DNA from: Candidatus Nitrosopumilus sp.
GTDB taxonomy: Archaea; Thermoproteota; Nitrososphaeria; Nitrososphaerales; Nitrosopumilaceae
Direction of reading: 5' to 3'
NCBI GenBank assembly: GCA_018263505.1
Contig: JAANXA010000056.1
Span: 1-43,362 of the forward strand
Length of the DNA stretch: 43,362 nt
Part shown: piece after piece, positions 1 through 42,687 of the stretch
How positions within the stretch are numbered: position 1 is the first letter of the stretch
Layout of the letters: each line of letters starts with the position of its first letter
Notes under the pieces: model-generated
The model's database searches: none
The model's input: the letters and a program-made list of their open reading frames with translations, nothing else
Told to the model about the DNA's origin: nothing
Made by a program: the position numbers and the translations under genes

Positions 1-4
1 ATGT

Positions 5-115
5 CTAAAAGCAAGTTAGTTTATTGTTCATACATCCTGACTTTCAGGTCAGACGGGTAGAGAGTCGGGATTCACTCCAAGAACAGTGTTTTTGAAGTTA
101 TTCCCGTCTGATCAA
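5..115 (+). repeat. Left 111-bp inverted repeat of the recombinase element
   Basis: Exact reverse complement of 1771-1881. It has internal symmetry: TCAGACGGG at 49-57 faces CCCGTCTGA at 103-111, and CCTGA at 36-40 faces TCAGG at 44-48. These nested arms look like recombinase binding sites or a cruciform. Identity stops at 4/5 on the outside and 115/116 on the inside, which gives sharp ends. Confidence 0.9.
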
Positions 116-176
116 ATCTTGACAGGTCCAAACATTTCAAGTTCTTTTTATGGTTCCACCATCTTAGGAGAAACAA

Positions 177-1763
177 TTGAAGATAAACAGAGACGAGTTC
201 AAAAGAAGCGAGGAAAAGTCAGCCCTAGAGCTGTTCATGCAGGGAATAAAGGCAGAAGAAACTAGGGAAAAATACACTAGAACCCTCAAAAGAATACTTT
301 GTGTCATACTGGAGGATTTTCTTGAAGGGTCATTTGATCAAAGGGCAAACCAATTGGTAAAGATGGCAAAGGATGATCCAAAATGGATAATAGACATTCT
401 GCTAAACCTATCAAAGAAACTAAGAGAGCGAACCACTCTCCCAAAAGATCATGCAGACTATCTCAACCCATCATCTGTTACCAATTACTTCAAACCAATC
501 AGGAAATTACTTGACATGAATGATGTGGCAATACCATGGAAACGAATCCAGACAACGTTTCCAGAGATTGACAACATTACACAGTCCAGGGAATGGAGGA
601 GAGTAGAAATTCAAAACATGCTAAACTATGCAAACGGTGCAATAGACAGGGCAATAGTCCTGATTGCAGCCAGTTCCGGTATTCGTGCAGGTGCGTTTAA
701 CCTGAACTGGGAGGATGTCATTCCAATTTACAACGTCAATGATCAATTAAAGACGGAAATCTCAGAGTCTGAAACTAAAGATTCCATAATTGCATGTGCA
801 ATGATAATGATATACAAGGGAACAAGTGCACAATATCCTGCATTTATCACGGCAGAAGCATATGAGGCACTACAGAATCACAAAAAAGAATGGAAAAACA
901 GAATCGGACGAGAGTCAAATCCAGATGAGCCAGTATTCATCAAGGAAGGAATGCTTGTAAGAAAGGCAAGTACCGTATCCATCAAAAGAAGAATAGAGAG
1001 GATGATTGAAAGAGCAGGACTGAGGGCACCACTTACAGAGGGCAAAAAAAGACACGAAGTTCCCATCATGAACGGCTTTAGGAGATTCTTCAACAAGACA
1101 ATCAAGCAAGAGATTTCAAGTGACTCGGCCCTTGCATCATTAATTAAAAAAGAGTACATGATGGGTCACACGGGCCTGGTGAAACTTGACAAGAATTATT
1201 TTAAGACAAATGTCATCGAGCTGGCAAAAGAATACTTGGAAGCATCAAAATCACTGACCATCAGTGATGAGCACATACTAAAAGTTGAAAACAAGAGCCT
1301 GAAACTACAGAAAAATGATTTGGAAAATACAAACTTGATTCGTAGTCTACAAAAACGAATTGAAGATTTGGAATACGGTAAGGATGCACGTGAAGGCGAG
1401 TATGCAAAAAACGCCTTACAGGCAAAAACACCGTTGGAAAAAGCAATTTCCAATATCTTAGTCCCAATATTTGAATGGGGCAATGATGAAAAATACAAAA
1501 GAAAATTCTGGAAGGAGAATCTTGCAGCAAAAAAAGAAGACAGGCCCATGAACAGATCAGCATATGCACGTGATTATGTCAAACGAAGCGATGAGGAGAA
1601 AAGAGAGATTTATGAATCTGCCACAAAGAGACTTGAATACCTGGAAAAACATCCATACAAAGATGAAGCACCAAAACGTTCCGGAAAACTTGGCAGCAAA
1701 AAAACACGATACCATGAAGAGAGAATACTAAGAGAATTGATTTTAGAGTGCAAGCCTACATAG
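177..1763 (+). CDS. Tyrosine recombinase/integrase of the inverted-repeat element
   Basis: 528-aa protein. The TTG start is supported by TTAGGAG just upstream (164-170). Residues 1-120 look like a SAM-like core-binding domain and 140-345 like the catalytic domain. Visible catalytic candidates are R170 in SSGIRAGAFNL, K214 in IYKGTSA, R312 in MNGFRRFFNK, H331 in MMGHTG and nucleophile Y341 in KNYFKT. The usual box II His is replaced (N309-x-x-R312); non-His residues there are known in some archaeal virus integrases. After Tyr341 comes a long charged extension with a predicted coiled coil (about 360-410) and a basic C-terminus, more than most Xer/integrase proteins carry. It is the only gene between the inverted repeats, so it is probably the enzyme that mobilises or inverts the unit. 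A specific subfamily cannot be assigned by eye. Confidence 0.8.
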   Translation: MKINRDEFKRSEEKSALELFMQGIKAEETREKYTRTLKRILCVILEDFLEGSFDQRANQLVKMAKDDPKWIIDILLNLSKKLRERTTLPKDHADYLNPSSVTNYFKPIRKLLDMNDVAIPWKRIQTTFPEIDNITQSREWRRVEIQNMLNYANGAIDRAIVLIAASSGIRAGAFNLNWEDVIPIYNVNDQLKTEISESETKDSIIACAMIMIYKGTSAQYPAFITAEAYEALQNHKKEWKNRIGRESNPDEPVFIKEGMLVRKASTVSIKRRIERMIERAGLRAPLTEGKKRHEVPIMNGFRRFFNKTIKQEISSDSALASLIKKEYMMGHTGLVKLDKNYFKTNVIELAKEYLEASKSLTISDEHILKVENKSLKLQKNDLENTNLIRSLQKRIEDLEYGKDAREGEYAKNALQAKTPLEKAISNILVPIFEWGNDEKYKRKFWKENLAAKKEDRPMNRSAYARDYVKRSDEEKREIYESATKRLEYLEKHPYKDEAPKRSGKLGSKKTRYHEERILRELILECKPT

Positions 1764-1770
1764 ATACAGA

Positions 1771-1881
1771 TTGATCAGACGGGAATAACTTCAAAAACAC
1801 TGTTCTTGGAGTGAATCCCGACTCTCTACCCGTCTGACCTGAAAGTCAGGATGTATGAACAATAAACTAACTTGCTTTTAG
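1771..1881 (-). repeat. Right 111-bp inverted repeat of the recombinase element
   Basis: Exact reverse complement of 5-115. It starts 7 bp after the recombinase stop codon, so the gene is packed tightly against this end. A degenerate copy in the same orientation as this end occurs at about 5559-5645. Confidence 0.9.
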
Positions 1882-2048
1882 CGTTTTTTACAATTCTTTT
1901 CAAAAATCATTTTGGATAATGTACATGTAATGTTTGCTGATATTTCTGAAAAGATTGATTTTTACAATATTCATACTATAAGAGTATTACTTCAATACAA
2001 ATTGAATCAATGCTTAACAACCTCATACAATATGAGGATGATAATAAC

Positions 2049-2672
2049 ATGAATAACAAAAAAACAATGACTTCGATAATTGCATTAAGTGCATTAATTG
2101 TAACCTTTGCAATGCCAAGTGCTTTTGCATCAGAAACTCCTATAGAGAGTTACTATTGGCAAACTAATCCTGAAACATGCTACTTAGAAACAGAGTTAGA
2201 TGATATTGACTTTAACGGAAGTAGATCAACATCAAACCAAGCAGATATCATATCTGAATTAGAAGTTACTAGATCCACATACAATACAGAAATGGGTACT
2301 ATTGATATATTAGGTGAAGATAGTGGTTCTTGTAGTGATACTAGAAGAATTGAAGTAGGCGCCTTTGATTTCGGTAATTGGTGGACATATGGCCAAGAAT
2401 CTACTGCATCTTCAGGAACTACTATGCTCAGATCATTTATTGACTTCAATACAAATTGGCTTGTAGGATTCGATAAAGATAGCGAAGCATGTAATAGGTT
2501 AGATGTTGATATGGAATGGATCTATAATCACGAACTAGGACACGGAATTGGATTGAAACATCATTCACACGTATTTGGAACTGCTGATACTCTAATGGGA
2601 TCATCATGTAGTTCTCAGTGGGATAGTTTTGGTGCAGATGATCATGGTGCAGTAGATCAGCACTACCCATAG
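2049..2672 (+). CDS. Secreted metzincin-type zinc metalloprotease
   Basis: 207 aa from the ATG at 2049. An in-frame ATG at 2010 would put 13 polar residues before the signal peptide, so it is less likely; GAGG at 2034-2037 also favours 2049. Residues 1-27 form a signal peptide ending MPSAFA|SETP. The zinc motif HELGHGIGLKH spans about 161-171 (H161, E162, H165, H171), followed by a Met-turn TLMGSS (M183): the HExxHxxGxxH plus Met layout of metzincins, closest to small matrixin-like proteases. Four cysteines in the mature part could form disulphides. There is no obvious propeptide with a cysteine switch. The next gene begins 6 bp downstream, suggesting a protease/partner operon. The substrate is unknown and the enzyme presumably acts outside the cell. 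Confidence 0.8.
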   Translation: MNNKKTMTSIIALSALIVTFAMPSAFASETPIESYYWQTNPETCYLETELDDIDFNGSRSTSNQADIISELEVTRSTYNTEMGTIDILGEDSGSCSDTRRIEVGAFDFGNWWTYGQESTASSGTTMLRSFIDFNTNWLVGFDKDSEACNRLDVDMEWIYNHELGHGIGLKHHSHVFGTADTLMGSSCSSQWDSFGADDHGAVDQHYP

Positions 2673-2678
2673 GAGATT

Positions 2679-3272
2679 ATGAAAATGCAAAAAAATACAA
2701 AAACACTTTCTATTTCAGCTATCATTGCAATAGTGGCAATAGCTTCTGTTTCATTGACAACTGTTGATTTTTCTAGTCAACAAACTGAATTAGAAACCCA
2801 AGAGACAATTGTTCAAACAATAAGTGGCTCTATGCCTGCTTACACACTTGAAGAATTAGCTAGTGGAACAAAATATGCAATTATTGGAACAGTCAAACAA
2901 ATCACACCTATAGCAGTCGAATCTGAGAGAATGCAGCAAACCATCTTTTCAGATGTTGTTGTAAAAGTCAAGGAAGATCTAAATGGCTTGTATGACCAAA
3001 AAGAGATCTCTGTTAGAATTCAAGGAGGTACTATTGATAACTTACAAACAATTTCTGAGCCAAGTGCAGAATTTGAAGTAGGAGAGAAAGTATTATTCTT
3101 TGTAGCTGACAAAGAACCTGATTCAATGTGGGGCGATAATTACTATGTTGCAGGTGGGTATTTAGGAAAATACAAACTTGATGACAATGGTAACGCACAC
3201 AGAGATAAAATCAATGATTCTATTGGTGAGCAAGATTTAGTTTCCAAAATCAAAAAATTCCGAGGTAACTAA
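2679..3272 (+). CDS. Membrane-anchored or exported protein, partner of the metalloprotease
   Basis: 197 aa with an N-terminal hydrophobic helix (about 8-28) and a soluble outer domain. The core YAIIGTVKQI ... VVVKVKEDLNG ... ISVRIQGG ... VGEKVLFFVADKE ... YYVAGGYLGKYKL is all-beta in character and resembles small secreted domains often encoded near extracellular proteases; no named family is recognised with certainty. AGGAG at 2671-2675 lies 3 nt before this ATG and 9 nt before an in-frame ATG at 2685, so the true start may be 2685. Only 6 bp separate it from the protease gene. Inference: it may modulate, anchor or protect against that protease. Confidence 0.65.
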   Translation: MKMQKNTKTLSISAIIAIVAIASVSLTTVDFSSQQTELETQETIVQTISGSMPAYTLEELASGTKYAIIGTVKQITPIAVESERMQQTIFSDVVVKVKEDLNGLYDQKEISVRIQGGTIDNLQTISEPSAEFEVGEKVLFFVADKEPDSMWGDNYYVAGGYLGKYKLDDNGNAHRDKINDSIGEQDLVSKIKKFRGN

Positions 3273-3291
3273 CCTCTTTTTTTATTTTAAA
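3271..3291 (+). terminator. Oligo-T terminator after the protease operon
   Basis: An eight-base T run directly follows the stop codon of the preceding gene, typical of archaeal intrinsic termination. No stem-loop is needed or seen. Confidence 0.5.
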
Positions 3292-3318
3292 TAAAAGATT
3301 AATCACAGACAATTAAAC

Positions 3319-3627
3319 ATGAATAAAAAACATTTAATTTTTGCAGTTGTTGGAATATCTTTGTTTATCTTTGGTATGACATTTGTAATTCCAGGAGGAG
3401 ATAGACATGGACCTGATATAGACGTTAATGAATTGCCTTATTCAGAAGCATGTACAATATTATCGGGAGAACAAGCCTGGAATGAAGTAGAAAATAGTTG
3501 TTTACTTTATGGTGATAATGCAGATCTTTGTAATGGTTTAGGAGGAAAAATGAGAGTCGAGAGAGAATGTACTACTGACGAATGTTTTATTGAATGTCTA
3601 TTTCCAATTGAAATAATTGATACATAA
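3319..3627 (+). CDS. Small anchored Cys-rich protein, function unknown
   Basis: 102 aa. One N-terminal transmembrane helix (about 5-25) precedes an outer domain with six cysteines, including the closely spaced set RECTTDECFIEC, suggesting disulphides outside the cell. No family recognised. It follows the protease operon after a T-rich terminator and so is probably transcribed separately. Confidence 0.55.
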   Translation: MNKKHLIFAVVGISLFIFGMTFVIPGGDRHGPDIDVNELPYSEACTILSGEQAWNEVENSCLLYGDNADLCNGLGGKMRVERECTTDECFIECLFPIEIIDT

Positions 3628-3762
3628 AACTAGAAATTCACAAAAATCCCAAAAATTAACTAATCTTTTTTGCACTAAATCTAAAATTTTAATAACTGAA
3701 ACTTAAGACCAAACCCATTAGGGTTCACACAACACAGTTCAAACCTGTTGAGATTTGATCAT

Positions 3763-3891
3763 CTATTTTTTAGATAATTCATTTTCAAGTGCCTTTGTAA
3801 CAAATTCTTTGATAGTTACACCGTCATCTACAATTCTATGCTTTAACTTTCGTTGGAGTTCTTCATCTATTTCGACAATTAATTTTGGCAC
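3763..3891 (-). CDS. Ribbon-helix-helix DNA-binding protein (42 aa)
   Basis: Very short GTG-initiated frame. The protein starts MPKLIVEIDEELQRKLKHR and continues VTIKEFVTKALENEL: a beta strand followed by two helices, the arrangement of CopG/ParG-type ribbon-helix-helix proteins. An AT-rich TATA-like stretch (TTATAAT type) lies about 25 bases upstream, consistent with a leaderless transcript. It diverges from the 59-aa gene at 3982 across a 90-bp spacer with tandem ATATGGGA units that could be its operator. Such proteins commonly autoregulate and are frequent on archaeal mobile DNA. Confidence 0.6.
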   Translation of the reverse strand: MPKLIVEIDEELQRKLKHRIVDDGVTIKEFVTKALENELSKK

Positions 3892-3934
3892 AGATTATGC
3901 TTTGTATAATATTATAAATACTAGATTATAAATA

Positions 3935-3950
3935 TATGGGAATATGGGAA
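3935..3950. promoter_or_regulatory. Tandem ATATGGGA repeats in a divergent promoter
   Basis: Two adjacent copies of ATATGGGA lie in the spacer between the ribbon-helix-helix gene and the 59-aa gene, next to TATA-like sequences for both directions. Short direct repeats are typical operators for ribbon-helix-helix dimers. The functional assignment is inference. Confidence 0.35.
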
Positions 3951-3981
3951 TATTTATGATTGCCTTTGTAGCAAATATTGT

Positions 3982-4161
3982 ATGTATTTACGCATAAAAT
4001 CAACCCAATCTACAACCAATTTATCAGAACAAGAAAAAATCATCAAAGCAGAACTCGAATCATGGATTGCAGATATCTACAAACATGCAGAGCTAGAAGA
4101 AAAACTGCAAAAGGCATTTGAGAACAGCAAGAGTCATGTTCAATCTTTGAGTGAATTGTAG
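3982..4161 (+). CDS. Small helical protein (59 aa), function unknown
   Basis: ATG start, reading MYLRIKSTQSTTNLSEQEK and then a charged, helix-forming stretch (LESWIADIYKHAELEEKLQKAFENSK) up to TAG at 4159. A TATTTAT box lies about 30 bases upstream, fitting a leaderless mRNA. Divergent from the ribbon-helix-helix gene. Composition is strongly coding-like for its length, but no family is recognised; a partner role to the regulator is only a guess. Confidence 0.45.
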   Translation: MYLRIKSTQSTTNLSEQEKIIKAELESWIADIYKHAELEEKLQKAFENSKSHVQSLSEL

Positions 4162-4217
4162 AATTTGAATCTAAAAGATTAGTACACTTTATGAGTATCA
4201 TATATCGAGTTTGAATA

Positions 4218-4451
4218 ATGCAAGTATATGTTCGCAAAGATGTTCAGGCGTTTGAATATGTCTCTTTTACTGAATTTAAAAGTGAAGATGAATTAGATTT
4301 TTGCTGTGAGAAATTAAAGAAATACGTATCAAGTGTAAAAGCCTGGAGTGGAAAAATTGGGAAATTCTGTATTGTAGAAAAAGATGTTCTTACTCCAATT
4401 GATTATTGTCCTTTTTGCGGTGAGAAAATAGAGTACATTTCTGTGGAGTGA
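4218..4451 (+). CDS. Small zinc-binding-like protein, function unknown
   Basis: 77 aa with cysteines C29, C30, C51, C64 and C67. The C-terminal YCPFCGEKI is a zinc-knuckle-type half-site, and C29/C30 could supply the other ligands. No signal peptide, so probably cytoplasmic. It lies 4 bp upstream of the next gene and may share its transcript. Family not recognised. Confidence 0.5.
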   Translation: MQVYVRKDVQAFEYVSFTEFKSEDELDFCCEKLKKYVSSVKAWSGKIGKFCIVEKDVLTPIDYCPFCGEKIEYISVE

Positions 4452-4455
4452 ATAA

Positions 4456-4842
4456 ATGAAAACTAGACTCTTGATAATTGCAGGAATTGTGATCATTGCA
4501 ATTATTATTGTGACTATAATAATTCCTGCATATCTATACAGACAATCAAATGATCTTATGACAATAAATTATGTTTGTGCAACTGGATTAAAACCAAATG
4601 CTTTTTCGGCTTACAAGATTTTTGATAATGGAACACACACCATTGATATGGACTCTTGTGGTTGGATTCCAAATAATCTGCGAAATACATCTAGTGGGGA
4701 ATATCAAGACCTAGCAAAAATGACCTGCGATGAAATCAAAATAAGATCTGAATCTGACATTCCATATAAGAACAAAGAAAACAGGTTATTTGCAGAGCAT
4801 CGATTATCTTTGTGTGCTTTTGTTGATCAGATTGAAAAATGA
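4456..4842 (+). CDS. Membrane-anchored protein with MKTRLLII leader
   Basis: 128 aa. A long N-terminal hydrophobic helix (about 4-28) anchors an outer domain with paired cysteines. The first residues, MKTRLLII, are nearly the same in the proteins starting at 8040 and 9384 and similar in the one at 4839. The last four bases overlap the next start (ATGA), implying translational coupling. Function unknown. Confidence 0.55.
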   Translation: MKTRLLIIAGIVIIAIIIVTIIIPAYLYRQSNDLMTINYVCATGLKPNAFSAYKIFDNGTHTIDMDSCGWIPNNLRNTSSGEYQDLAKMTCDEIKIRSESDIPYKNKENRLFAEHRLSLCAFVDQIEK

Positions 4843-5132
4843 AAACCAAACCACTTCTTGTTGTAATTGCAATACTGCACTGGATGTTTTACGGATTTTG
4901 GATAATTCCAGTAATCATAAATCCCGAAATATGGTTTTTTGGAGAAAAATTCAGCGGATATGATGCAATGGCAATTCATTTTACCATTGGAATTGCAGGA
5001 TCTGTTTTGGGATGGTTAATCTACAGAAAGACCAAATTTGCATATCTTGCAGGAATTGCCTTGTTTGGGATTGTATTGTTCAGTGTTTTGGTAAACCACC
5101 TTACCTGCTGGGAATTTGACCTTTATTGCTAG
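4839..5132 (+). CDS. Small multi-pass membrane protein
   Basis: 97 aa with about three membrane helices (5-26, 45-62, 66-86) and a Cys-containing tail CWEFDLYC. It overlaps the upstream gene by 4 bp. Family not recognised. A 590-bp stretch without a gene follows, holding a relict mobile-element end at about 5559-5645 and otherwise nothing identifiable. Confidence 0.5.
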   Translation: MKTKPLLVVIAILHWMFYGFWIIPVIINPEIWFFGEKFSGYDAMAIHFTIGIAGSVLGWLIYRKTKFAYLAGIALFGIVLFSVLVNHLTCWEFDLYC

Positions 5133-5558
5133 TATGCTCCTAGAATGAAAAATTCGCCAAATAGTGCAAAATCTTAAGTCGTGGCTATATTCCCCGCGCC
5201 ATTTGTGGTAGAGGTGAATTTGAACTTCTAGGAATAGATTGTTTGAAAAAATTGAATTTTCAATAATAATTTGTATTGGAATTTGAACCATAAACAAAAC
5301 TCTCTTACCAAATCTATTAGGATTTGGACTTTCTAATCTTGTATGTGATTACGAATCGGTTGTGGATTATTTACACAAGTTACAACTAACACATAGTATT
5401 TTTTTTGTTTTTTATAAAATCCTAAATATATAATTTTGACACAAACTTTAAACTATTTGGTAGTTTGAAACTGATTTGATTGTATCTTGAACTGAAACAA
5501 CAAAATCAAAAAAGATTCAACAATTAGAAAAGAAGATCCATTTGGTTAATCAAAAGTT

Positions 5559-5645
5559 GTTGGTCAGACGGAAATGACTTCAATAAACATTCGTCTTTGA
5601 AGTGAACCCTTAACTTTCTACCATCTGACCTGAAAGTAAGGGTAT
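5559..5645. repeat. Relict copy of the 111-bp element end
   Basis: Aligns with the right repeat from 1771 onward: shared blocks are GTCAGACGG, GACTTCAA/AACTTCAA, AGTGAA, TCTACC and TCTGACCTGAAAGT, with scattered substitutions and small indels (roughly three quarters identical by eye). Similarity fades at about 5645, so the outermost part of the 111-bp end is lost. It has the same orientation as the right end at 1771-1881. Confidence 0.7.
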
Positions 5646-5733
5646 CTTGGAATCCTTTTACTTGTATATATTGCGATTGGTTCAAAATATTTTTAATCAA
5701 ACGCTATAAGCAAATTGTTTTATGATATTTTTA

Positions 5734-6117
5734 ATGACATCTAAAACGATAAAAACAATATTGTTTGCTGGACTCATTGCTGCAATGATTCTTCCATTCT
5801 CGATGGTTGACTTTGCTGATGCTGATAAAGTAAATGACAAAGACAAGAATGTGAAAGCAATTGAAAAAGAAGCAAAAAACACTTCTAAGCAACTAACGAA
5901 AGCTGATAAAGAAAACTTAGATCAGAAAATTAAATCTACCAAAAAAGTACAAGATTTACTTAAAGGTAAAAATGTAGTTTTAATTGATGAAAGTTATCAC
6001 GGCAATCTATTAGAATTAGAAGCAAATCCTGATACCCCATTAGATATCATTATGCACTACGAAGTTGATGGTCAACCATTTACTGTAGTAGTTGATGGTA
6101 CTACTAATGAAATATAG
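5734..6117 (+). CDS. Exported protein, N-terminal part of an amber-split reading frame
   Basis: 127 aa from the ATG at 5734; an ATG at 5722 adds MIFL, but CTATAAG sits about 28 bases before 5734 and the signal peptide reads better from there. Residues 1-30 are a signal peptide (LIAAMILPFS...DFADA), then a Lys-rich segment and a small domain ending YEVDGQPFTVVVDGTTNEI, resembling a PepSY-like propeptide. The TAG at 6115 is followed in the same frame by GGT and ATG of the next open stretch, which lacks its own signal peptide. The two may once have been, or may still be, one pre-pro-protein. Confidence 0.6.
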   Translation: MTSKTIKTILFAGLIAAMILPFSMVDFADADKVNDKDKNVKAIEKEAKNTSKQLTKADKENLDQKIKSTKKVQDLLKGKNVVLIDESYHGNLLELEANPDTPLDIIMHYEVDGQPFTVVVDGTTNEI

Positions 6118-6120
6118 GGT

Positions 6121-6879
6121 ATGAAATTGTATGAAGAAAACGGACCATTATTACCAAATAATGGTATTGTGGCAGCTTACCCAAATTGGAACAATCAAGC
6201 TATTGATGGACTCAGAATGGATATAGACAACACACCAGACTGGACATACCAATTTGGTTATGGTTGGAATGCACTTTTGTTAAATGGACAAAAGGCTGGC
6301 CAGAATTGGGGTTTATGCACTCCAACACAATTTCCTAATGCATACTTTGCACAAGTCGGATTAATTTTCGATAGTACAGGTGCTGATTTTGCTTGGGCTG
6401 ACACACAAACATCATGCAATCCACAAAGAATATTTACATCAGTATTTACTGGATTATCCGGTGATCCTGCACCAGCAAGTACAGGTGACGATCTGATTTT
6501 CCAGATAACTGTTGATGATTCAACAGATACTTGGATATTGTATGCATACAATATTACAACCTCTGACTATTGGTACAAATCCAAAGTCGTATCCAGTTCA
6601 AATCTTCTCGCAATAGGCACACCAAATACAAGTGTCTTTTACGAAAATCCTAGAGTAGCTGGTACTGGTTGGAGTAATGGTTTTGCAGCAGATCCTGTAG
6701 TGGATAATGCATATGAAAGACGAGATTCAAACGGTGGCTGGTATAATTGGAGTTCAGAAGCACAAAATGATTTCCAATGTAATCCAGGTCTTCTATCTAT
6801 AGGAGATTATCTTAGTGGTACAACCGTAACTGGTCTAACATTTGATGTATCAGACATAGATGCTGACTGTGGAATCTAA
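6121..6879 (+). CDS. Exported-type domain protein lacking a signal peptide (downstream of in-frame amber)
   Basis: 252 aa, rich in W, Y, N, D and T, with cysteines in CTPTQF, TSCNPQ, QCNPG and DCGI, the composition of a secreted beta-rich domain. Repeated Gly/Asn/Trp segments such as FGYGWNALLLNGQ suggest a globular sandwich, but no family name is secure. There is no signal peptide and no convincing separate ribosome-binding site. The frame is continuous with the preceding gene except for one TAG, so it is either translated by reinitiation or readthrough, or is the stranded half of a broken gene. Confidence 0.55.
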   Translation: MKLYEENGPLLPNNGIVAAYPNWNNQAIDGLRMDIDNTPDWTYQFGYGWNALLLNGQKAGQNWGLCTPTQFPNAYFAQVGLIFDSTGADFAWADTQTSCNPQRIFTSVFTGLSGDPAPASTGDDLIFQITVDDSTDTWILYAYNITTSDYWYKSKVVSSSNLLAIGTPNTSVFYENPRVAGTGWSNGFAADPVVDNAYERRDSNGGWYNWSSEAQNDFQCNPGLLSIGDYLSGTTVTGLTFDVSDIDADCGI

Positions 6880-6910
6880 AATAATTTAAATCCCTCTTTT
6901 CTTTTTTTGA
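6880..6910 (+). terminator. T-rich terminator before 6912
   Basis: A pyrimidine tract with runs of four and seven T follows the 6879 stop codon and ends just before the next ATG, consistent with intrinsic archaeal termination. Confidence 0.4.
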
Positions 6911-6911
6911 T

Positions 6912-7784
6912 ATGACTAAAAAATCCATAATAATATCATCTACTTTTGTAATAATAACAATAATTGTCATTGCATTATACTTTAACAATACTATCTATTT
7001 TGATGAATCAGATAGATATGATTTACAAAACACAATTGTTTTAGAAAATCGTGTTACTGTAGAATCTCATAGTGGAGAACATTTAATCGAATATAATTTA
7101 AAAGGAAAAACAGTTAAAAAAATTGAATTTAATAAATATGCCAATACTCTAGATATGGTATTAGATGGTAAAGACCCTGGACAAATGACAATAAAAATTC
7201 CAAGAAGTTTAATGGATAACAATGAAATTAATCAAGATAAACCATATGAAACTTGGCCACGTACAGAAATTACGGAAGAAAAAAATTCAGATTTTAGATT
7301 ATTATCTTTTGTTATTCCATATGATTCAAGTTTGTTGATTTTACATCACAAAAAAATTATTGACTTTGATGAAGATTATGGTTTTGCTTTAACGTTTACT
7401 CCTCAATATATGACAGGACTTGTACGTGAACTGGAAAAATTTGCTATTGAAGTAGATAATATTGCTTTATCTAATGTACCAAAAATCCAAGATTCAATGG
7501 AAATATCATTAACATATGCTGATAGAGTGGAAAATGAGTTCATTGAAACTCATGATATAAAAAATATAATTGGTAATTACAGAGTCATGAATCCTGGCCC
7601 TGCTACATTTGTGTTACACTCATTCATTAATCAAACAAATGAATTTGATTTTTACAAAAAATGGGCATATGATAATTTAGAAGCTGTACCACTTTATGAC
7701 AAACCAGATCATTTTTACATTAAATACAAAGGCGAAGTATTTGAATTAAAATTTGAAAATCTTGATTTAGAATTATATGATTAA
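6912..7784 (+). CDS. Membrane-anchored extracellular protein, function unknown
   Basis: 290 aa. N-terminal transmembrane helix (about 5-24) followed by a large hydrophilic outer domain of beta-rich composition, no cysteines and no recognisable catalytic motif. AT-rich codon use matches its neighbours. It is preceded by a T-rich terminator, so its own promoter must lie within the previous gene's tail. Family not recognised. Confidence 0.5.
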   Translation: MTKKSIIISSTFVIITIIVIALYFNNTIYFDESDRYDLQNTIVLENRVTVESHSGEHLIEYNLKGKTVKKIEFNKYANTLDMVLDGKDPGQMTIKIPRSLMDNNEINQDKPYETWPRTEITEEKNSDFRLLSFVIPYDSSLLILHHKKIIDFDEDYGFALTFTPQYMTGLVRELEKFAIEVDNIALSNVPKIQDSMEISLTYADRVENEFIETHDIKNIIGNYRVMNPGPATFVLHSFINQTNEFDFYKKWAYDNLEAVPLYDKPDHFYIKYKGEVFELKFENLDLELYD

Positions 7785-7805
7785 TAATTATTAAATCCTC
7801 TAGAG

Positions 7806-8043
7806 GATCACAATAAAACAAAAATCAAAAATCCAAGAAGATGAAGCTAAATATGAATCTAACAAAGATAAATTAAAAACTATGAAAAATTTATCTCCAT
7901 CTTTGAAAAGGATCTCAAAAAAATATCTGATTTTGACCCTTCAGAATACACTTCCTCCTAAATTTGGTATGGTGGACCTGTCAAAACTCAAACAAAAGAT
8001 TAGAAGTATTTATGAATGTCATATCTTTAGCTTGAATAATTGA
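7806..8043 (+). pseudogene. Possible decayed coding remnant
   Basis: Coding-like peptides occur in different frames of the same strand: QEDEAKYESNKDKLK in one, then YEKFISIFEKDLKKISDFD up to a TAA in another, then a further open stretch running into the TGA at 8041. No intact start exists and at least one frameshift is needed to join them. This looks like a degraded gene rather than a promoter region, but it could be chance in AT-rich DNA. Confidence 0.2.
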
Positions 8044-9557: not shown

Positions 9558-9636
9558 AATTTAGATTGAAGAAGGGTATTTTTCATCATAAATGTGAATT
9601 ACATCAGCACATATCATTTCATTTTGATTCATTTCT

Positions 9637-9879
9637 TCATGCTCTTGTTTTATCAATTCTCTTTTTCAATAACCAGATACCAGGGATGAAAAATATCAAA
9701 AAGAAAATCACTTGAACAAATAATACGGTGTGACTTGCAATCTCATGCAACATTTCTGTAAATACTCCGCCTACTGTATGATGTAAGATCATCAATGCAA
9801 TAGGATAAAAAAAGTAACTTGACACACCAATTAAACCAATTCCACAAAATACAAAAAGATAGAATTTCTTATTTGTCAT
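9637..9879 (-). CDS. Small two-helix membrane protein
   Basis: 80 aa from the ATG at 9879, starting MTNKKFYLFVFCGIG. An upstream in-frame start at 9951 would add 24 unlikely residues and overlap the neighbouring gene. Two transmembrane helices (about 5-29 and 50-72) and a basic C-terminus LLKKRIDKTRA. Downstream of the candidate lipoprotein gene at 9912-10100 in the same direction. Family not recognised. Confidence 0.45.
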   Translation of the reverse strand: MTNKKFYLFVFCGIGLIGVSSYFFYPIALMILHHTVGGVFTEMLHEIASHTVLFVQVIFFLIFFIPGIWLLKKRIDKTRA

Positions 9880-9911
9880 GTTCAGAAAACAGTTTAGAAA
9901 AATAAAAAAGG

Positions 9912-10100
9912 TTAGTTGGCAATATGCCAAGCTATTACGTAAGTGTCCCACCAGATAACAGGTGCTGTATAGGACAATATCTCTGGATTTGGTTCTGGTT
10001 GTTGAGAATTGAAGTTGGTGTAAGATGTTACAACTCCTTGTGCTCTCATCTCACCATTACTGCATCCAAATACAAAAAGGTGTATTTGTAAGCAAATCAT
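9912..10100 (-). CDS. Candidate short lipoprotein
   Basis: 62 aa. The hydrophobic start runs into LFVFGCSNGE, a plausible lipobox (FVFG|C), then a Pro/Tyr/Trp-containing tail PVIWWDTYVIAWHIAN. The N-terminal hydrophobic stretch is short for a lipoprotein signal, so the gene may be truncated at its 5' side. It would be the first gene of a two-gene transcript with 9637-9879. Confidence 0.35.
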   Translation of the reverse strand: MICLQIHLFVFGCSNGEMRAQGVVTSYTNFNSQQPEPNPEILSYTAPVIWWDTYVIAWHIAN

Positions 10101-10162
10101 ATCAAGAGATGCTTAAGATGGTTGAAATGATAGGTTCTTGAAAATCCCTATAACTTCTACAC

Positions 10163-10434
10163 CCCTAAATTAGGCCCTAAATTAGCCTAATTTTTCCCTA
10201 AATTAGCCTAAACCAAAACCTAATTTAGCCTACTTTGCCCTAAATTAGCCTAAATTAGGATTAAATTTAGCCTAAACCTTAAAACACGCACGATTTTTTT
10301 AGCCTAATTTTAACTAAATTTAATTAAATTTAGCCTAAACCAACTAATTTCCCTAATTTTTCCCTAAATTAGGCCCTAAATTAGCCTAATTTTTCCCTAA
10401 TTTCCCCTATTTCTTCATTAATTTTTCCCTAAAC
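10163..10434. repeat. Dense cluster of CCCTAA / CCTAAATTAG repeats
   Basis: The 270-bp non-coding stretch holds nine CCCTAA and about eight further CCTAA units on the plus strand, many followed by ATTAG so that near-palindromes such as CCTAAATTAGG form. A 39-bp segment is repeated exactly at 10163-10201 and 10362-10400. No gene is present between 10101 and 10576. It precedes purC by about 140 bp. Function unknown; candidates are a protein-binding array, an origin-like element or a decayed repeat expansion. Confidence 0.8.
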
Positions 10435-10576
10435 TGAAATTAAAGTAAATTAAGTTAGAATAATTTATTTAATCAAAAATCAATTTTGAGAAATTTTTAA
10501 CAATTGTTTCAAAATATTTAGAATCGGTATTTCATCTCCCCAGCAGTTAAATTTCATCACCATCCATCAAAATTAA

Positions 10577-11401
10577 TTGAAGTTCCTCACTAGTGGTAAA
10601 GTAAAGGATCTATACGATATAGATGGAGATACAATTCTTTTCAAATTCTCAGATAGAGTATCAGCTTATGATGTGAAATTTCATCAAGACATTCCACAAA
10701 AGGGCAAAGTCTTGTGCAGTTTTGCACAATTTTGGTTTGATAAATTAGATGTACCAAATCATTTTGTTGAGAAAAAATCTGACACTGAAATCACTGTTAA
10801 AAAAATGAAAATGATTCCAATGGAGTGCGTGGTGAGGGGTTATTTTTATGGCAGTTTGATTAATCGATGGAAGAAAGGTGAAGTGTCTATCCCTTCTGGT
10901 GCTGATACTACGATGGCTGCAAAATTACCTGAACCAATTTTTGATCCTACTACAAAGTCAGAGCATGACATTCCTGTAAACAAAGAAAAAGCATTAGATA
11001 TGAAACTAGTAACTGAGGAACAATTTGAATATCTCAAAAAAACATCTCTTGAGATTTACAATAAAATGGCAAGAATTGCAGATGATGCTGGCTTTATTTT
11101 GGCTGATTTGAAATTGGAATTTGGATTACTTGATGGGGTGATAACTTTGGGTGATTCTATTGGTCCTGATGAATATAGATTATGGCCTAAAGATTCCTTT
11201 GAAGTCGGTAAAATCCAAGAAGCATATGACAAACAACTGTTACGCGACTGGTTAACTGCTAATGGATATCAAAAACAATTTGATAATGCACGTGATGCTG
11301 GAAAAGAACCTATAGCTCCTCAAATCCCATCTGATGTAATTTCAAAAATGACCCAACGATACATTACAGCATATGAGAAATTATCTAGAAAATCTATCTA
11401 A
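10577..11401 (+). CDS. purC: Phosphoribosylaminoimidazole-succinocarboxamide synthase (SAICAR synthase)
   Basis: 274 aa from a TTG start; no ATG fits. It catalyses ATP-dependent condensation of CAIR with aspartate in purine synthesis. Family features: SGKVKDLYDIDGDTILFKFSDRVSAYD at the N-terminus (phosphate/ATP-binding), ECVVRGYFYGSL near 82, IFDPTTKSEHD near 118, LADLKLEFGL near 175, and LGDSIGPDEYRLWP near 193. Length fits the bacterial and archaeal type. It stands alone, with no other pur genes around. The repeat cluster 10163-10434 lies directly upstream. Confidence 0.95.
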   Translation: MKFLTSGKVKDLYDIDGDTILFKFSDRVSAYDVKFHQDIPQKGKVLCSFAQFWFDKLDVPNHFVEKKSDTEITVKKMKMIPMECVVRGYFYGSLINRWKKGEVSIPSGADTTMAAKLPEPIFDPTTKSEHDIPVNKEKALDMKLVTEEQFEYLKKTSLEIYNKMARIADDAGFILADLKLEFGLLDGVITLGDSIGPDEYRLWPKDSFEVGKIQEAYDKQLLRDWLTANGYQKQFDNARDAGKEPIAPQIPSDVISKMTQRYITAYEKLSRKSI

Positions 11402-41349: not shown

Positions 41350-42687
41350 TTAATTTTTAGGCGGATTTGCAAATCTGTTTTCAGAATTATTATGATAGTT
41401 TACTGGTAACATTGCATCTTTTTGTCTACCTGTTAAAATTCCTACTACTGTATCATCTTTTTTCATAACTCCTTCACTGATTAGTTTTTTAATTCCTACA
41501 ACGGATGCACCTGATGCCATCTCACAATCAAACCCATTTAATCCTACAACTGACATACCATCAAGCATTTCTGAATCTGTCACCGTTGTTACTATTCCAT
41601 TAGTGAACTCTAATGCTCGTAAACCTTTTAGAATATTTGCAGGTCTTCCAATTTGTATCGCAGTGGCTTTTGTTTTTGGTCTTAAACCTTCTTTATCTAG
41701 ATGATCATAATATCTAGAAATCAATTCTGTATTTGGTTTTCCTTTATTCCATCGTAACTCTTCATCTTCAAATTTTCCATTATACAAATCTGATAACGTA
41801 CTTGCACCTTCAGAATTGATTACTGCTATTCTGGGAATTTTTTTTATCCATCCCCATTCATATAATTCCATCAAAGCTTTTCCACAACTTGATGTATTCC
41901 CTAATGCTCCACCTGGATATACAATCCAATCTGGTGCCTCCCAGTTAAGATATTCTAATGCTCTAAATGGAATTGTTTTTTGACCTTCGATTCTAAATGG
42001 ATTTACAGAATTTACTGTGTACCCATCATGATTTTTTGCATCGTCTAAAGACTGTTTTAATGCATCATCAAAGTTTCCATCAACTTCAAGAATTTGAGCT
42101 CCATATTGATATGCTTGACTGAGTTTTCCTGGAGCAATTTGACCTGCTGGAATATACACATCACAATTAATTCCTTCATTTGCTGCAAACATTCCTGCAG
42201 CAGCTGATGTATTCCCTGTAGATGCACACACTATTTTTTTTGCACCTACCATTTTTGCATGAGTGACTGCAGTTGCCATCCCATTATCTTTGAATGAACC
42301 ACTTGGGTTGTATCCTTCTGGTTGTAACCACAAATTATCACTTTGAATCTCTATGAATTCTGAGGCTTTTGTCATGTGGTATGGTTTTGAAAGTCTACCT
42401 TCTGCACCATCTAATGAAACCAAAAATTTTGAACATTGTTCAATATCTTCTGTATCTATTTGACAAAAATTTAACAGTTCTCTGAATCGCCATACTCCAC
42501 TTTCATTGAAAATACTTCCTTGTGGATTACGCCTTTTGTAAAAAACATCTTTTAGATTTTCTGAAGGTTTGTTTTTGTATTTTACATCTAATAGATGTCC
42601 TTTTTCACATTGAACATTAGTGCTCTCTATTGGATATTCTAAACCACATTGAATATCAATACATTTGAGAAAAGCATCACCATTCAT
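41350..42687 (-). CDS. thrC: Threonine synthase
   Basis: 445 aa from the ATG at 42687; an in-frame start at 42741 adds 18 residues that do not look like the family. N-terminal zinc-ribbon-like CIDIQCGLEYPIESTNVQCEKGH, then the PLP fold with K133 in YNPSGSFKDNGMATAV, CASTGNTSAAAGMFAA, YPGGALGNTSSCGKAL and GVVGIKKL-type end (ASGASVVGIKKLISEG). Converts O-phosphohomoserine to threonine. Gene-free 42688-43070 upstream shows AT-rich sequence only. Confidence 0.9.
   Translation of the reverse strand: MNGDAFLKCIDIQCGLEYPIESTNVQCEKGHLLDVKYKNKPSENLKDVFYKRRNPQGSIFNESGVWRFRELLNFCQIDTEDIEQCSKFLVSLDGAEGRLSKPYHMTKASEFIEIQSDNLWLQPEGYNPSGSFKDNGMATAVTHAKMVGAKKIVCASTGNTSAAAGMFAANEGINCDVYIPAGQIAPGKLSQAYQYGAQILEVDGNFDDALKQSLDDAKNHDGYTVNSVNPFRIEGQKTIPFRALEYLNWEAPDWIVYPGGALGNTSSCGKALMELYEWGWIKKIPRIAVINSEGASTLSDLYNGKFEDEELRWNKGKPNTELISRYYDHLDKEGLRPKTKATAIQIGRPANILKGLRALEFTNGIVTTVTDSEMLDGMSVVGLNGFDCEMASGASVVGIKKLISEGVMKKDDTVVGILTGRQKDAMLPVNYHNNSENRFANPPKN

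What the first reader, a model, noticed from the sequence alone, without database searches (positions are those of the whole stretch)
5..1881. Tyrosine recombinase packed between perfect 111-bp inverted repeats: an IS-like or self-inverting unit
Classical IS elements use DDE, HUH or serine enzymes with 10-40 bp ends. Here one tyrosine-recombinase gene fills the space between 111-bp ends that are identical in every base. A tyrosine recombinase acting on inverted sites could invert the 1.65-kb segment (flipping its own gene) or move as a unit. I know of no well-described family of this build in ammonia-oxidising archaea, though a search might show one.
Basis: partly seen in the sequence, partly recalled or inferred. 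Interest (0 to 1): 0.75.

Follow-up and report, generated by a model that had tools for sequence, protein, structure and literature searches.

The report
Archaeal integrase between copied leader repeats
A DNA-joining enzyme gene in an ammonia-oxidising archaeon sits between two identical mirror-image 111-base stretches; the enzyme is an ordinary relative of ones that insert elements at transfer-RNA genes, and the mirror stretches are copies of a leader found in front of secreted-protein genes, so this is not a new kind of jumping gene, although the segment may be able to flip.

Summary
In detail: 5-115 and 1771-1881 are perfect inverted 111-mers around an intact tyrosine-recombinase gene (177-1763). 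The left arm begins 4 bp from a contig end.

The IS-like reading fails. The repeat is a leader element of secreted-protein genes: it recurs at 5560 and in two closed congener genomes without any recombinase, and the right arm continues as 300 bp of shared leader. The recombinase belongs to a Nitrosopumilaceae integrase family: 36 of 55 relatives lie just downstream of a tRNA gene, the five closest beside tRNA-Val(CAC). The window copy keeps a tRNA-Val-3'-like att core (119-130), outside both arms. That core recurs, inverted, at 7970-7984, 8 bp from where a sister genome resumes colinearity. Best reading: the integrase of a roughly 7.9-kb island of secreted-protein genes, landed at a non-tRNA site beside a duplicated leader.

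Flipping of the integrase cassette stays plausible. The arms are homogenised (other copies differ by 10-20%), and one relative (Cenarchaeum, L013) has a perfect 126-bp inverted pair beside its integrase that would swap surface-protein heads. No reads were available, so flipping is inferred; a left-arm artefact is unlikely but not excluded.

The parts
5..115 (-). Left arm: inverted copy of the secreted-protein leader element; 4 bp from the contig end
119..130 (+). TTGACAGGTCCA, att-like core resembling the 3' end of tRNA-Val(CAC); in relatives the tRNA 3' end sits at this place
141..160 (+). GTTCTTTTTATGGTTCCACC, block conserved in relatives between the tRNA 3' end and the integrase start
177..1763 (+). 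Tyrosine recombinase (integrase), 528 aa, intact active site, C-terminal extension from about residue 360
1771..1881 (+). Right arm: leader element of the gene at 2049; starts 7 bp after the integrase stop codon
1882..2070 (+). Rest of the leader and start of the signal-peptide region; together with the arm, 300 bp shared with G064 (90%) and G013 (81%)
2049..2672 (+). Secreted protein, weak matrixin-like match (Peptidase_M10, E 2.5e-4, below the Pfam cut-off)
5560..5652 (+). Third, diverged copy of the leader element upstream of another secreted-protein gene
7970..7984 (-). TTGACAGGTCCACCA, second att-like core (inverted relative to 119-130), 8 bp from where sister genome G069 becomes colinear (7992)

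Best explanation
The gene encodes a tyrosine integrase of a Nitrosopumilaceae family that normally inserts elements at the 3' ends of tRNA genes, above all tRNA-Val(CAC). Here it lies at the left end of a roughly 7.9-kb island of secreted-protein genes whose edges carry two short att-like cores resembling the tRNA-Val 3' end (119-130 and, inverted, 7970-7984), so the island was inserted at a non-tRNA intergenic site. The 111-bp arms are not transposon ends but two inverted copies of a leader element that precedes secreted-protein genes: the left one just outside the core, the right one belonging to the gene at 2049. Their perfect identity means they were recently duplicated or are kept equal by recombination between them (host homologous recombination, or low-specificity integrase action), which would also flip the integrase cassette now and then. 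Shown: anatomy, enzyme family, tRNA neighbourhood of relatives, leader copies elsewhere, island edge. Inferred: integration at these cores, activity of the enzyme, and any flipping.
For: 36 of 55 distinct relatives lie directly downstream of a tRNA gene on the same strand, 26 of them at 29-51 bp; the five closest (58-61% identity) are at tRNA-Val(CAC); four have direct att repeats 4-12 kb downstream. The window keeps the conserved GTYCTTTTTATGGTTCC block and a GGTCCA core in the place of the tRNA 3' end. The same 12-mer recurs only at 7973-7984, at the point where sister genome G069 (98-99% identical) resumes; G069 lacks integrase and leader. The repeat occurs without a recombinase in G064, G013 and at 5560, always upstream of a secreted-protein gene, and right-arm homology runs on for 300 bp. 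Zero differences in 111 between the arms against 10-20% between other copies. Precedent for integrase-driven recombination of identical segments as short as 104 bp: pTN3 (PMC8371274).
Against: The two cores are inverted, whereas plain integration gives direct repeats, so a later rearrangement must be assumed. A 12-base match is not significant alone in 43 kb; its position carries the argument. The left edge of the island cannot be checked because the contig ends. The arms bracket the core plus integrase very tightly (3 and 7 bp), which a chance meeting of a leader and an integrase does not explain well.
Confidence: 0.55

Rival explanations
1. A dedicated DNA-inversion switch: the integrase recombines the two 111-bp sites, flips its own gene, and changes which neighbouring secreted-protein gene is transcribed, much as the central Int1 gene does for tail-fibre genes in haloviruses phiCh1 and phiH1.
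For: Perfect homogenised inverted arms bracketing the gene; secreted-protein gene on the right and leader orientation implying one on the left; relative L013, 50% identical, has a perfect 126-bp inverted pair 48 bp from its start, inside two inverted copies of a stalk-and-head secreted protein, one lacking its signal peptide; archaeal precedent phiH1 (PMC6210493).
Against: The att-like core is outside the arms and absent at the right arm; only one of 55 relatives shows such a pair; leader copies elsewhere have no recombinase; no read evidence for two orientations.
Confidence: 0.25
2. The left arm is an assembly or amplification artefact: a foldback copy of the right arm joined to the integrase at the contig end.
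For: The left arm begins 4 bp from the contig end and is identical to the right arm.
Against: None of 22 other contig ends of this genome carries a terminal inverted repeat of 40 bp or more; the outward bases differ from those beyond the right arm; the bases just inside the left arm match G064 6/7 and G013 5/7, those inside the right arm do not (0.2% of window heptamers do as well), though a common intergenic motif may explain this.
Confidence: 0.12
3. An IS-like transposon with 111-bp terminal repeats mobilised by a tyrosine recombinase.
For: One gene fills the space between perfect inverted ends.
Against: Single copy in the genome and not found as a unit in 94 congeners; the repeat occurs without the gene; right-arm homology continues 190 bp beyond the supposed end; relatives have tRNA att sites, not terminal repeats.
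Confidence: 0.04

Closest known systems
tRNA-targeting tyrosine integrases of thaumarchaeal integrated mobile elements (Krupovic et al. 2019, PMC6563490)
   Same: Same enzyme type; relatives lie next to tRNA 3' ends with direct att repeats; the window copy keeps the att-proximal anatomy and a tRNA-Val-like core
   Different: The window copy is not at a tRNA gene, its far core is inverted, and its C-terminal extension comes from another integrase type
Int1 inversion cassette of haloviruses phiCh1 and phiH1 (PMC6210493)
   Same: An archaeal tyrosine-recombinase gene lies between inverted repeats next to surface or adhesion genes
   Different: No sequence similarity between the enzymes; in the viruses inversion swaps gene bodies and is reported, here it is inferred and the arms lie in leaders, not in genes; exact arms 35-53 bp against 111 bp
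pTN3 integrase of Thermococcus nautili (PMC8371274)
   Same: Archaeal integrase that recombines identical DNA segments of about this length (104 bp) and causes inversions
   Different: Another integrase group; activity of the window enzyme is untested
Insertion sequences with terminal inverted repeats
   Same: One recombinase gene between inverted ends
   Different: Ends are shared leader sequence that occurs alone elsewhere; single copy; different enzyme class

Membership tests
Tyrosine recombinase superfamily | Catalytic fold of Xer and lambda integrases | tested here: met
   Foldseek of the AlphaFold2 model: XerA 5hxy E 4e-6, 4a8e, 1z19; model confidence moderate (pLDDT 74)
Tyrosine recombinase superfamily | Active-site Arg, Arg, His, Tyr conserved | tested here: met
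   R170, R302, H331, Y341 in 47-50 of 50 aligned relatives; the first position of HxxR is N in most members
tRNA-type integrases of thaumarchaeal elements | Sequence relatives next to tRNA 3' ends | tested here: met
   36 of 55 relatives; five closest at tRNA-Val(CAC)
tRNA-type integrases of thaumarchaeal elements | The copy itself is inserted at a tRNA gene | tested here: not met
   No tRNA near 1-2000; only a GGTCCA core remains
tRNA-type integrases of thaumarchaeal elements | Direct att repeats at both ends of the element | tested here: not met
   The second core at 7970-7984 is inverted
Insertion sequence | Terminal repeats belong to the element and end where homology to other copies ends | tested here: not met
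   Right-arm homology runs on into the neighbouring leader; the repeat occurs alone
Insertion sequence | Several copies or empty and occupied sites with target duplication | tested here: not met
   Single copy, no second locus in 94 congeners; target duplication could not be examined at the contig end
DNA-inversion system (phiCh1/phiH1-like, invertons) | Recombinase next to perfect inverted sites | tested here: met
DNA-inversion system (phiCh1/phiH1-like, invertons) | Recombinase core site present at both inverted arms | tested here: inconclusive
   The att-like core is next to the left arm only; the true crossover site is unknown
DNA-inversion system (phiCh1/phiH1-like, invertons) | Both orientations occur in the population | not testable with these tools
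   No reads are held; one genome per species

The most novel reading that the evidence does not exclude
A tRNA-type integrase has been turned into a DNA-inversion switch for secreted or surface proteins in ammonia-oxidising archaea, with two anatomically different examples: the window (integrase inside the invertible segment) and the Cenarchaeum locus L013 (integrase beside an invertible pair of surface-protein gene bodies).
Probability: 0.27. Interest if true: 0.7.

Novelty: new variant of a known kind. Interest (0 to 1): 0.42.

Why it matters
It shows where this integrase family can land when it is not at a tRNA gene: beside secreted-protein genes in a hypervariable island. It also points to a concrete, testable candidate (L013) for surface-protein switching in Nitrosopumilaceae, for which I found no described case in the papers searched. 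If inversion were shown, these archaea would have a phase-variation mechanism, for example against viruses or for life in sponges.

Tried and rejected
Rfam scan of 1-6000: one sub-threshold snoRNA-like hit inside the gene. Consensus fold of four leader copies: stems TCAGACGGG/CCCGTCTGA and ACTTCA/TGAAGT with variable loop length but no covariation, so an RNA role is only suggested. The 15-mer ACCTGTYRAGATTTG looked like an att core but is part of an intergenic motif, CAAACCTGTTRRGATTTG, found in several places. An apparent 94-bp inverted repeat in L153 was a run of N. IMG/VR scans with the leader pattern and with the protein found nothing. A sequence profile search of the PDB gave nothing useful; fold comparison did. 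My idea that the native-like bases inside the left arm prove a past inversion was downgraded, because the intergenic motif can explain them.

Full report
What is there. The two arms, 5-115 and 1771-1881, are perfect inverted 111-mers with 1655 nt between them. The longest exact inverted repeat in 100 first-order Markov simulations of the same 3 kb was 18 nt. The window is a complete contig of the genome (C52 of 68; 1.37 Mb, 97% complete), so the left arm begins 4 bp from a contig end. The gene between the arms runs 177-1763, 528 aa.

The enzyme. Pfam, NCBIfam and PHROGs do not recognise the window protein; a relative (L079) hits a PHROG integrase family at E 2e-4. The AlphaFold2 model (mean pLDDT 74) matches XerA (E 4e-6), another archaeal Xer and lambda integrase. 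R170, R302, H331 and Y341 are conserved through the family; the first position of HxxR is N299 in most members and H in distant ones. The C-terminal part, from about residue 360, extends beyond that of close relatives and is 59% identical to the C-terminus of a different integrase in G089.

Relatives. I collected 55 distinct relatives (mostly 39-61% identity) with their flanks, nearly all from Nitrosopumilaceae. In 36 a tRNA gene lies directly upstream on the same strand, in 26 of them 29-51 bp from the start codon. The targets are tRNA-Val(CAC), Lys, Arg(GCG), Ala, Thr, Ile, His and Phe; the five closest relatives are all at tRNA-Val(CAC). Four show direct att repeats 4-12 kb downstream.

Att anatomy of the window copy. 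In relatives the tRNA 3' end (GGTCCACCA for Val) is followed after 7-10 nt by a conserved GTYCTTTTTATGGTTCC block and then by the gene. The window has the block at 141 and, 10 nt before it, GGTCCA within TTGACAGGTCCA (119-130). The same 12-mer occurs once more in the window, on the other strand, as TTGACAGGTCCACCA at 7970-7984. Sister genome G069 becomes colinear with the window (98-99% identical nearby) from 7992 and lacks the integrase and the leader. G069 carries the intergenic motif CAAACCTGTTAGGATTTG at that place. I read 119-7984 as an inserted island with att-like edges. A 12-base match alone would not be significant in 43 kb; its place at the island edge makes it so. The inverted orientation is not explained by plain integration and needs a later rearrangement.

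The arms. The repeat is not tied to the integrase. A copy about 80% identical is at 5560-5652, and single copies are in the closed genomes G064 (90%) and G013 (83%) with no recombinase beside them. In all of these it lies roughly 70-250 bp upstream of a secreted-protein gene. The right arm, G064 and G013 share about 300 bp, from the repeat to the start of the signal peptide, after which the gene bodies differ. So the arms are copies of a leader element. The left arm lies 3 bp outside the core, and the right arm starts 7 bp after the integrase stop. Zero differences in 111, where other copies differ by 10-20%, has a probability of about 8e-6 under 10% divergence. The arms are recent duplicates or are kept equal by recombination.

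Is the left arm real? None of 22 other contig ends of this genome has a terminal inverted repeat of 40 bp or more. The bases just inside the left arm match G064 6/7 and G013 5/7, those inside the right arm do not (0.2% of window heptamers do as well). These bases also fit the intergenic motif, so they speak for a genuine arm more than for a past inversion.

Could it flip? Three points favour it. The arms are homogenised. The pTN3 integrase recombines identical segments as short as 104 bp (PMC8371274). And in locus L013, from a Cenarchaeum genome, an integrase 50% identical to the window's starts 48 bp from a perfect 126-bp inverted pair (1718-1843 / 4827-4952). That pair lies inside two inverted copies of a secreted protein with a coiled-coil stalk and a variable head, one of them lacking the signal peptide. 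Inversion there would swap heads, as reported for haloviruses phiH1 and phiCh1 (PMC6210493). Against it, in the window the core lies outside the arms and is missing at the right arm, and only one of 55 relatives shows such a pair. The phiH1 Int1 protein has no detectable similarity to the window enzyme.

Verdict. This is an ordinary integrase family at an unusual site, bracketed by duplicated leaders. It is not an insertion sequence. Flipping is possible and easily tested with reads. The most interesting lead is L013 rather than the window itself.

Noticed in passing
L013 (VYCS01000017.1) 1203-6389; same locus as L145 (G311:C44): A Cenarchaeum secreted protein (coiled-coil stalk, variable head) and a silent inverted copy without signal peptide share a perfect 126-bp site 48 bp from a tyrosine integrase: a likely invertible surface-protein switch.
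   Followed up: partly
window 1260-1763; G089:C28 2531-3037 (L101): The C-terminal 170 residues of the window integrase are 59% identical to those of a G089 integrase whose catalytic part is different: a swapped C-terminal domain.
   Followed up: partly
window 5737-6879: A secreted-protein gene behind the third leader copy is split by one in-frame TAG at 6115-6117.
   Followed up: no
window 3740, 5309; L184 3432; L077 7298: Intergenic motif CAAAYCTRTTRRGATTTG recurs near these secreted-protein genes, 42 bp upstream of the leader in G064 and at the G069 junction.
   Followed up: partly
L081 (G000:C31) 9570-10801: In the window's genome tRNA-Val(CAC) is occupied by a different integrase (about 30% identical), which may be why the window copy sits elsewhere.
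   Followed up: no
L008 and L019 (CATQGX010000001.1): A contig labelled uncultured Gammaproteobacteria encodes two integrases of this thaumarchaeal family; probably a mislabelled or misbinned record.
   Followed up: no
L192 and L206 (starts of G000 contigs C2 and C34): The two contig starts overlap head to head by about 160 bp at 98%, so they could probably be joined.
   Followed up: no
window 42412-42507: ARAGORN reports a tRNA with a four-base anticodon (gtta) overlapping the 41350-42741 gene on the same strand; probably a false call.
   Followed up: no
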